Of a DNA stretch of 64,000 nucleotides, positions 17,689 to 23,793 are shown piece by piece (the first letter of the stretch is position 1; each line of letters starts with the position of its first letter). The notes below the pieces were generated by a model that ran no database searches, had not been told where the DNA came from, and saw only the letters and a program-made list of their open reading frames with translations. The position numbers were made by a program, and so were the translations under genes. Origin of the DNA: Natronococcus sp. A-GB1 (GTDB taxonomy: Archaea > Halobacteriota > Halobacteria > Halobacteriales > Natrialbaceae); contig NZ_JARUKW010000002.1 in the NCBI RefSeq assembly GCF_029688845.1, positions 248,001-312,000 of the forward strand. The letters run 5' to 3'.

Positions 17689-18705
17689 ATGTCGGACGAG
17701 TCGGCGACCGATGGGGACGTCGAACCCCCCGAAGAGCCGCGGGACGAGCCCGAGGACGATGCCTCGAGCGACGCCGATGCGGAACCCGACACCGACGACG
17801 AGACGGAGCCTGACGTAGACGCCGATGCGGAACTCGACGCCGACGACGACGGTGCGCTCGAGCGGGCCGACGACGACGAGCCCGAACTCGAGACCGACGG
17901 CGAGGGGGTCGTCGGCGACCGACCGGAGGAGCCGGATACGACCTACCCCGACCCCGACGAGGACGTCGGCGGGATCTCGACCCCGCCGGACGACGAGGAG
18001 ATGCCCCTGGCCGACCACATCGAGGAGATGGTGCTCCGGCTGGCGGTCGTCTTGCTCATCGGCGCGGCCGGGACCGCGATCGGGCTGCTGTGGGCGTCTC
18101 AGGCGATCGATCACATCTGGAACAACGTCTTTCCCTCTCAGTTCGAGCAGGTCCCTCCGCCGCATATTTACCACCCGCTCGAACTGTGGTTGACCCGGAT
18201 CAAGCTCTCGGCGCTGCTGGGGATCATGGTCGCGCTGCCGATGTTCGTCTACCAGTGTTACCTGTTCATGAAGCCGGGGCTGTACCCCAACGAGCGCAAG
18301 TACTACCTCGCGGCCGTCCCGACCAGCGTCGTGCTCGCGGCGCTGGGGATGATCTTTTCGTACCTGCTGGTGTTGCCGATCCTCTTCCAGTACTTCACGT
18401 TCTACGCCGAGGGGAGTGCGGGGATCGCCTACGCGCTCGGAGACACGTTCAACCTGATCATCACGCTGACAGGCTTCCTCGCGATCGTCTTCCAGATCCC
18501 CCTGTTCATGATGCTCGCGATCATGATGGGCGTGACGACCCGGAGGTGGCTCGCGGACAAGCGGCTGTACTTCTGGGCCGGCTTCGCGGGACTGGCCTTC
18601 CTGTTTACCGTAGACCCGACGATGATGGCGCCCATCCTCGTCGCGATCACGATGATCCTGCTGTTCGAGGGAACGCTGCTACTCCTGAAGTGGACGGGCA
18701 GGTAG
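17689..18705 (+). CDS. tatC: Sec-independent translocase TatCo
   Basis: Single-domain TatC. 338 residues: residues 1-105 are an acidic, low-complexity cytoplasmic extension. Residues 106-338 form a six-helix TatC core beginning MPLADHIEEMVLRLAVVLLI, with PMFVYQCYLFMKPGLYPNERKYY and LADKRLYFWAGFAGLAFLFT. The long acidic N-terminus is common in haloarchaea. It is divergent from tatCt. A palindromic element follows 10 bp after the stop. The window encodes several likely Tat substrates (32142, 36524, 56597, 57717). Confidence 0.95.
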   Translation: MSDESATDGDVEPPEEPRDEPEDDASSDADAEPDTDDETEPDVDADAELDADDDGALERADDDEPELETDGEGVVGDRPEEPDTTYPDPDEDVGGISTPPDDEEMPLADHIEEMVLRLAVVLLIGAAGTAIGLLWASQAIDHIWNNVFPSQFEQVPPPHIYHPLELWLTRIKLSALLGIMVALPMFVYQCYLFMKPGLYPNERKYYLAAVPTSVVLAALGMIFSYLLVLPILFQYFTFYAEGSAGIAYALGDTFNLIITLTGFLAIVFQIPLFMMLAIMMGVTTRRWLADKRLYFWAGFAGLAFLFTVDPTMMAPILVAITMILLFEGTLLLLKWTGR

Positions 18706-18715
18706 CCGGTCCCGT

Positions 18716-18800
18716 CTGATACGGTTTACTGTACGTCATTTCCGCCGCAACCCGACCCGAACCAGCGGTTGCGCCGGTAAATCGTTACAGCACCGTATGA
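18716..18800 (+). repeat. Palindromic dispersed element, copy 1
   Basis: 85 bp starting 10 bp after the tatCo stop. It begins ctgatacggtttactgtacg and ends cagcaccgtatga. Outer arms (tacggt..ctgt) and inner arms (gccgcaaccc against gcggttgcgcc) pair imperfectly, so RNA would form one long hairpin. A close relative on the other strand lies at 23707-23793, with the blocks acggtttactg, gcggttgcgccgg and tacagca shared. Both sit in the same orientation behind a gene's stop codon. The role is inferred: a terminator, mRNA stabiliser or non-autonomous element. Confidence 0.75.
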
Positions 18801-19125: not shown

Positions 19126-20896
19126 GTGGCGCATAAGAAAGAGGGCCAGAAGGCCGATTGCTACGGTGACGAGGTTCGTGAACACATCATCGAGTTCGCC
19201 GAAAGCGGCGGCTACGAGGCGATTCCGGATGTGAAACGCGAGGAGTGGTTCACCCGATTTAAGTTCTGGGGGTTGTTCCACCAGCGCGACGGCCAGGAGT
19301 CGTACTTCATGATGCGGCTGACCAACGCCAGCGGCGTTCTCGAGCCCGGCCAGTTACGGGCGATCGGCGAGGTCGCCAGCGACTACGCGGCGGGTCCCGT
19401 CGAGAACCCCGAGTACGGCAACGGCTGGATCGATCTCACGACTCGACAGTCGGTCCAGCTCCGCTGGCTGAAACTCGAAGACGTCCCGGAGATCTGGGAG
19501 AAACTCGAGTCGGTCGGCGTCTCCTCCCGGTCGGCGGGCGGGAATACGATGCGTAACATCTCCGGAAGCGCCCTCCACGGCGAGGTCGAGGAGTACGTCG
19601 ATTCCGGCCCGCTGCTCGAGCGGTTCCAGGATGAACTCCGCGGGGACGACGCGCTTGCGAACATGCCCCGGAAGTTCAACATCAGCGTGACGGGATCGAA
19701 GTCGGGCTGTGCACAGGACTCGCTCAACGACATCGGGTTTGAGCCGGCCCGCAGGGAGATCCAGGGGGAGTCCGTCAAGGGATTCAACGTCCGCGTCGGC
19801 GGCTGCCTCGGCGGTCGCCAGCCCCGCGCGGCGACCTCGCTCGACGTCTTCGTCCGCCCCGAGAACGCCTACGAGGTCGGTCGCGGTCTCGTCGAGCTCT
19901 ACCACGAGCACGGCAACCGCCAGAACCGTTCGAAAAATCGCAGGCGCTTTTTCGTCGAAGACTGGGGCGAGGAACGGATCCGCGAGACACTCCAGACTCG
20001 GTACGTCGACGTCGAGCTCGAGACCGCGGGCGAGAGCTTCCGCGAAGAGTAGACCTACAACGCGGAAACCTGCCGACGCCGGCAAGCGCGATCACGTCGG
20101 CGTTCACGACCAGCGAGGCGAGGGCATGCACTACGTCGGACTAACGGTCCCGGTCGGCCGCATGCCCGCCGAGGACGCCCTCGAGCTCGCCGATCTCGCC
20201 GACGAGTACGGCTCCGGGGAGCTGCGGCTCACGCGCCGACAGAACCCCGTGATCGTCGACGTTCACGAGGACGTCCTCGAGGAACTGCTCGACGAGCCGC
20301 TGCTCTCCGAGTACCGCCCCGAGCCGAGTCCCTTCGAACGTGGCGCGATGGCCTGTACCGGTACCGAGTTCTGCTCGATCGCGCTGACCGAGACGAAAGC
20401 CCGAATGGCTCGGATGCTGCGCTGGCTCAACGGAAACGTCGACCTGCCCGACGACGTCGGGACGATCAAGATCCACTACTCGGGCTGTACCGCCGACTGC
20501 GGGCAGGCCATGACTGCCGACATCGGACTCCAGGGGATGCGCGCCCGCAAAAACGACGAGATGGTCGAGGCGTTCGACATCGGCGTCGGCGGTGGCGTCG
20601 GGGAGGAGCCGTCGTTCATCGAATGGGTTCAGCAACGGGTTCCCGCCGGCGAGGCCCCCGGCGCGATCAAGAACCTGCTCGAGGCGTTCACTGCCCACCG
20701 CGAGGCGGGACAGACGTTCCGCGAGTGGACCGAAGCGTCCGGAACCGAGACGCTGATCGAGTGCTGCGAGCCCGAGGAAACCGATTTCGAGGCACCGTAC
20801 ATGGCCGACGCCAAGCAGTCCTGGTATCCGTTCGCCGACTCTGACTCGCTAGCGGAGGCGACCGCGAAGAGTTCGATTGTCCCCTCCAACGACTGA
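19126..20896 (+). pseudogene. nirA: Ferredoxin-dependent nitrite/sulfite reductase, disrupted in the middle
   Basis: Siroheme/4Fe-4S reductase for six-electron reduction of nitrite to ammonium (or sulfite to sulfide). Reading from GTG 19126 gives 308 residues with the N-terminal half (TRQSVQLRWLKLEDVPEIWE, NTMRNISGS, KFNISVTGSKSGCAQDSLND, GGCLGGRQPRA), then TAG at 20050. The C-terminal half continues in the +1 frame to 20896 (visible from ATG 20126, MHYVGLTVPVGRM). It holds ACTGTEFCSIALTETKARM and GCTADCGQ, the four cluster cysteines. After the TAG the original frame still reads TYNAET before the shift at about 20073. The alternative is that one extra base near 20050 explains both the stop and the shift. 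Total length (about 588 residues) is normal. Either a true pseudogene or a sequence error. Confidence 0.85.
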
Positions 20897-23706: not shown

Positions 23707-23793
23707 TCATACGGATTGCTGTACCGATGTCCCGGCGCAACCGCCACACGGGTCGCGGTTACACCGGTACTGACTTCCAGTAAACCGTCTCAG
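23707..23793 (-). repeat. Palindromic dispersed element, copy 2
   Basis: 87 bp. Read on the minus strand it starts ctgagacggtttactggaag and ends atccgtatgagcc, matching copy 1 at 18716-18800 along its length with scattered differences. The inner gcggttgcgccgg arm is intact. It begins 16 bp after the stop of the minus-strand gene at 23809, in the same orientation relative to that gene as copy 1 has to tatCo. Confidence 0.75.

What the first reader, a model, noticed from the sequence alone, without database searches (positions are those of the whole stretch)
19126..20896. Nitrite/sulfite reductase broken by a stop and a frameshift within about 25 bases
Both halves retain all key motifs, including the four cluster cysteines in the second half, so decay is recent if real. 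The frame after the TAG still reads TYNAET before the shift, which would mean two lesions. A single extra base near 20050 would explain both but gives a less natural joint. If real, the strain cannot assimilate nitrite by this route.
Basis: partly seen in the sequence, partly recalled or inferred. Interest (0 to 1): 0.6.

Follow-up and report, generated by a model that had tools for sequence, protein, structure and literature searches.

The report
Decaying nitrite reductase gene in Natronococcus
In this salt-lake archaeon the gene for the enzyme that turns nitrite into ammonium is broken by two separate mutations, and the nitrate transporter of the same pathway is frameshifted too, so the strain seems to be losing the ability to feed on nitrate; this is ordinary gene loss in a well-known pathway.

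Summary
The gene at 19126-20896 is the assimilatory ferredoxin-nitrite reductase (NasD/NirA) of a Natronococcus species. An in-frame TAG (20050-20052) and a separate net loss of two bases (20062-20068) break it. All eight congeners searched, and the 57 distinct uninterrupted haloarchaeal orthologs aligned, read through.

It looks like real decay rather than a local base-calling error. On the window's branch nirA has 26 amino-acid-changing and 30 silent substitutions, against 38:92 in neighbouring genes (p = 0.03). Five of the changes hit residues invariant in 57 orthologs, in both halves. Natronococcus has split the cluster: nasA and a NarK-type transporter lie on another contig. There nasA is open but the transporter carries a one-base frameshift; it is intact in all 23 other genomes that have it. 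Of 165 genes compared with N. amylolyticus, these two were the only internal breaks I accepted after inspection.

Best reading: recent, ongoing loss of nitrate/nitrite assimilation. Two intact paralogs (51% and 39% identical) remain whose substrate is unproven, so the phenotype needs a growth test. Nothing here is a new kind of system.

The parts
19126..20052 (+). N-terminal half of the nasD/nirA pseudogene (308 codons, first ferredoxin-like + NIR_SIR domain pair), ending at the premature TAG
   Evidence: orthologs start at the equivalent GTG/ATG
20050..20052 (+). lesion 1: TAG where the five relatives aligned at the joint have a tyrosine codon (YTYNAG motif)
20062..20068 (+). lesion 2: net loss of two bases relative to relatives, shifting the frame; exact bases not assignable because the neighbouring third-position base also differs
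20066..20896 (+). C-terminal half in the shifted frame (second domain pair), to the normal stop
20354..20500 (+). the four cysteine codons for the [4Fe-4S]-siroheme cluster (20354, 20372, 20486, 20498), retained
17689..18705 (+). tatC1, conserved upstream neighbour; in most Natrialbaceae nasA (and in the locus read, L038, a transporter gene) lies between it and nirA, but not here
18716..18800 (.). 85-bp dispersed repeat inserted between tatC1 and nirA; absent at this site in the relatives compared; no demonstrated link to the decay

Best explanation
The feature is a recently inactivated copy of nasD/nirA, the assimilatory ferredoxin-nitrite reductase (siroheme, [4Fe-4S]). In intact relatives the enzyme takes electrons from ferredoxin and reduces nitrite from NasA to ammonium. 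Here the stop codon would end translation after the first of the two pseudo-symmetric halves, and the second half, which carries the cluster cysteines, would not be joined to it, so no working enzyme is expected. The same genome has a frameshift in the NarK-type transporter next to nasA, so the nitrate assimilation pathway as a whole appears to be decaying, with nasA so far largely intact. Shown: both lesions, the intact relatives, the transporter frameshift and the changed invariant residues. Inferred: loss of activity, the order of events and the phenotype.
For: Two independent lesions against intact orthologs. Window-branch nonsynonymous:synonymous 26:30 in nirA versus 38:92 in flanking controls (Fisher p = 0.03), and 4.4 versus 1.1 nonsynonymous changes per 100 codons. 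H113R, D140N, G227C, D509G and A523T hit residues invariant in 57 unique orthologs, in both halves; none of the six changed sites on the N. amylolyticus branch is invariant. The transporter is frameshifted at G000 C3 about 85188 and full length in 23 other genomes. Of 165 genes tested, nirA and the transporter were the only internal breaks accepted on inspection. Functional assignment: nasA co-occurrence 25/25 with the gene versus 2/36 without, and linkage to nasA in most orthologous loci; the Haloferax mediterranei nasABC-nasD system is characterised (PMC2483277; PMC8143581).
Against: No raw reads were available. The N:S excess is moderate: versus the N. amylolyticus branch p = 0.17, and for nasA plus transporter alone p = 0.30. 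N:S is far below the neutral expectation of 2.6-3.3, so most of the branch was under constraint. nasA is still open and mostly constrained. The transporter has a single one-base lesion that could by itself be a sequencing error.
Confidence: 0.86

Rival explanations
1. The breaks are sequencing or assembly errors in a draft genome and the gene is functional.
For: The genome is a 57-contig draft; several differences cluster within about 25 bases; the N. amylolyticus comparison assembly itself has broken genes next to unknown bases.
Against: Invariant residues are changed elsewhere in both halves, which a local error would not explain. A second gene of the same pathway is broken, while other tested genes are not; having found nirA, the chance that a further random break among 164 genes falls on one of the other two pathway genes is about 1%.
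Confidence: 0.08
2. Gene fission: the two halves are made as separate polypeptides that assemble into a working enzyme, since the break falls between the two A-B domain pairs.
For: The lesions lie in the linker between the two domain pairs; NirA has an A-B-A-B layout proposed to come from fusion of two-domain proteins (PMC11237513); the cysteines are kept.
Against: Both halves carry changes at invariant residues. The second half has no start codon at the joint: its first ATG is about 60 bases into the shifted frame, inside the region matched by PF03460. Fission would not explain the transporter frameshift.
Confidence: 0.04
3. Programmed recoding (stop readthrough plus frameshift) yields full-length protein.
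For: Only that both halves are still recognisable.
Against: It would need two recoding events within about 16 bases; neither the TAG nor the shift is conserved in relatives, and the conserved tyrosine codon is simply changed.
Confidence: 0.01

Closest known systems
NasD (assimilatory ferredoxin-nitrite reductase) of Haloferax mediterranei and orthologs such as N. amylolyticus NirA
   Same: Same gene family; 93% identity over the N-terminal half to N. amylolyticus; same domain layout and cluster cysteines.
   Different: The window copy is interrupted by a stop and a frameshift and has changes at invariant sites. Cluster layout also differs: in H. mediterranei nasD sits beside nasABC, here it is alone beside tatC.
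Plant ferredoxin-nitrite reductase (tobacco 3b0g, spinach 2akj)
   Same: Best solved-structure relatives of the intact N. amylolyticus ortholog (E 1e-84 and 5e-80).
   Different: Distant (other domain of life); the haloarchaeal protein has Gly where wild-type tobacco has Met in the SG(M/G)D motif.
Paralogs in the same genome (C34, C1)
   Same: Same NirA/SiR superfamily, uninterrupted frames.
   Different: 51% and 39% identical. They carry a CGD motif where this family has GGD; from my own knowledge of the families, the Cys is typical of sulfite reductases, but this was not tested. The C1 copy sits next to a coenzyme-F420 hydrogenase beta-like protein.

Membership tests
Assimilatory ferredoxin-nitrite reductase (NasD/NirA) | two ferredoxin-like half domains and two NIR_SIR domains in A-B-A-B order | tested here: met
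   PF03460 and PF01077 twice, once per half
Assimilatory ferredoxin-nitrite reductase (NasD/NirA) | four cysteines for [4Fe-4S]-siroheme (C-x5-C ... C-x3-C) | tested here: met
   CTGTEFC and CTADC in the second frame
Assimilatory ferredoxin-nitrite reductase (NasD/NirA) | genomic association with assimilatory nitrate reductase NasA | tested here: met
   25 of 25 genomes with this gene type have NasA, 2 of 36 without it do; linked in most orthologous loci. In this genome nasA is on another contig
Assimilatory ferredoxin-nitrite reductase (NasD/NirA) | score above the curated cut-off of the NCBIfam ferredoxin-nitrite reductase model | tested here: not met
   halves score 202.7 and 218.3 bits, cut-off 594; the intact same-genome paralog also falls short (427), so the cut-off seems too strict for haloarchaeal proteins; the intact ortholog was not scored
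Assimilatory ferredoxin-nitrite reductase (NasD/NirA) | reduces nitrite to ammonium with ferredoxin | not testable with these tools
   needs enzyme assay
Pseudogene | frame-disrupting lesions absent from relatives | tested here: met
Pseudogene | relaxed constraint on the lineage | tested here: met
   N:S 26:30 versus 38:92, p = 0.03; five invariant sites changed; moderate strength, partly constrained history
Pseudogene | no functional product | not testable with these tools
   needs proteomics or growth tests

The most novel reading that the evidence does not exclude
The two halves function as a naturally split nitrite reductase (fission at the A-B|A-B boundary), or the strain reverses part of the pathway by keeping NasA for a purpose other than nitrogen assimilation while discarding uptake and nitrite reduction.
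Probability: 0.05. Interest if true: 0.55.

Novelty: new member of a known kind. Interest (0 to 1): 0.25.

Why it matters
It is a clear, datable snapshot of pathway loss in a haloarchaeon: the nitrite reductase and the transporter are broken while nasA is still open. It warns against predicting nitrate assimilation in this strain from the presence of nasA alone. It gives a small natural test of whether divergent NirA-like paralogs can replace NasD. The biology is otherwise ordinary gene decay.

Tried and rejected
Single extra base near 20050: rejected, the first frame still aligns codon by codon beyond the TAG. A second nirA of the same type in the genome: none found; only two divergent paralogs. 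Copper nitrite reductase NirK as a bypass: no match. Initial idea that nasA had been lost in Natronococcus because it is missing beside tatC: wrong, it is on contig C3. Initial idea that the C55 molybdopterin enzyme was the nitrate reductase: it scores as formate dehydrogenase alpha. Phosphosulfolactate synthase as neighbour of the C34 paralog: wrong, it is geranylgeranylglyceryl phosphate synthase. Ten other apparent breaks among the 165 tested genes were put down on inspection to over-extended starts, C-terminal ends, a spurious antisense frame or gaps in the comparison genome. Literature searches found nothing on nitrate phenotype in Natronococcus in the held library.

Full report
What was checked. 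The window lies in a 57-contig draft genome of a Natronococcus species (G000, contig C12, 4.5 Mb, 99.96% complete). The genus is inferred from its congeners; the closest one found is Natronococcus amylolyticus DSM 10524. The frame opened at 19126 ends at TAG 20050-20052, and homology continues in another frame to 20896. The two pieces match consecutive parts of ferredoxin-nitrite reductase models.

The lesions. Aligned with five congeneric orthologs, the codons for TYNA after the TAG are still in the first frame; then two bases are missing and the second frame begins with AAA CCT GCC. Because the third-position base of the preceding codon also differs, it is not possible to say exactly which two bases were lost.

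Intact relatives. All eight congeners searched have an uninterrupted frame, and so do the 57 distinct orthologs used for the conservation test (that set was selected for uninterrupted frames). One genome outside the family, G042, also has an in-frame TAG in its ortholog, at another codon.

Error or decay? Substitutions were assigned to branches with two outgroup congeners. On the window's branch nirA has 26 nonsynonymous and 30 synonymous changes; non-pathway genes near the two loci have 38 and 92 (Fisher p = 0.029). The same nirA on the N. amylolyticus branch has 9 and 22; the direct contrast between branches is not significant (p = 0.17). Neutral expectation is about 2.6-3.3, so by rough interpolation the gene lost constraint only for the last fifth or so of the branch, an estimate with wide error. 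Five window-branch changes (H113R, D140N, G227C, D509G, A523T) fall on residues invariant in 57 unique orthologs, three in the first half and two in the second. A base-calling error at the joint would not produce that, nor would a gene fission that kept both halves working.

The pathway. In most haloarchaeal loci fetched, nasA lies within 5 kb of this gene. Genomes with this gene type always had NasA (25 of 25), and genomes without it rarely did (2 of 36). In Haloferax mediterranei the corresponding nasABC-nasD genes are characterised as the nitrate assimilation system (PMC2483277; PMC8143581). In the window's genome nasA lies on contig C3 and is uninterrupted; 2 of its 19 branch-specific changes, G251R and R370L, hit residues conserved in at least 96% of orthologs. 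Close to it, the NarK-type transporter gene has lost one base after codon 101, so that only residues 101-439 match in one frame; the 23 other genomes with a comparable transporter have it at or near full length.

Background rate. 165 genes of N. amylolyticus could be compared over about 458 kb of the window's genome. Twelve were flagged. I inspected these by hand: the others were over-extended starts, ends of genes, a pelota upstream extension, a spurious antisense frame or a comparison gene with an unknown base, which leaves nirA and the transporter as internal breaks. This sorting was a judgement, not a blind test, and the contigs were chosen because they hold pathway genes. If breaks fell at random, the chance that one further break hits one of the two other pathway genes is 2 in 164, about 1%.

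Can something replace it? The genome has two other uninterrupted NirA/SiR proteins (C34, 51%; C1, 39%). Both resemble plant nitrite reductase and the mycobacterial NirA best. They have a CGD motif where this family has GGD, which from my own knowledge points to sulfite reductases; that was not tested. Two genomes (G017, G058) have NasA but not this gene type, only the C34-like type, so that type might reduce nitrite there. No copper nitrite reductase was found. The growth phenotype therefore stays open.

Verdict. A recent pseudogene in a pathway that is being lost: real, well explained and of a known kind. Raw reads and growth tests are the missing evidence.

Noticed in passing
window 18716-18800 (and 23707-23793): An 85-bp dispersed repeat with imperfect terminal inverted repeats, inserted between tatC1 and nirA with what looks like a 3-bp TGA target duplication; 26 copies in this genome against 0-11 in congeners. 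MITE-like; no link to the nirA decay was shown.
   Followed up: partly
L022 codon 215 (G042:C2, about 480370): The ortholog in a genome of another family has a single in-frame TAG, with nasA and a transporter uninterrupted. Either a recent independent lesion or a sequencing error.
   Followed up: partly
L166-L182 (G003:C31 about 147.7 kb and 207.4 kb): Two N. amylolyticus genes are interrupted at unknown bases; one carries the peptide IRDVYKRQ next to the gap, which I recognise from memory as typical adapter contamination. Caution when using this assembly as a reference.
   Followed up: partly
L115:6095-9803 (G000:C1): A NirA/SiR-like protein is encoded beside, and overlapping, a ferredoxin-domain coenzyme-F420 hydrogenase beta-like protein, recalling a split version of F420-dependent sulfite reductase.
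   Followed up: no
window 17827-17855: The acidic N-terminal stretch of tatC1 is 96 bases shorter than in N. amylolyticus, in-frame overall.
   Followed up: no
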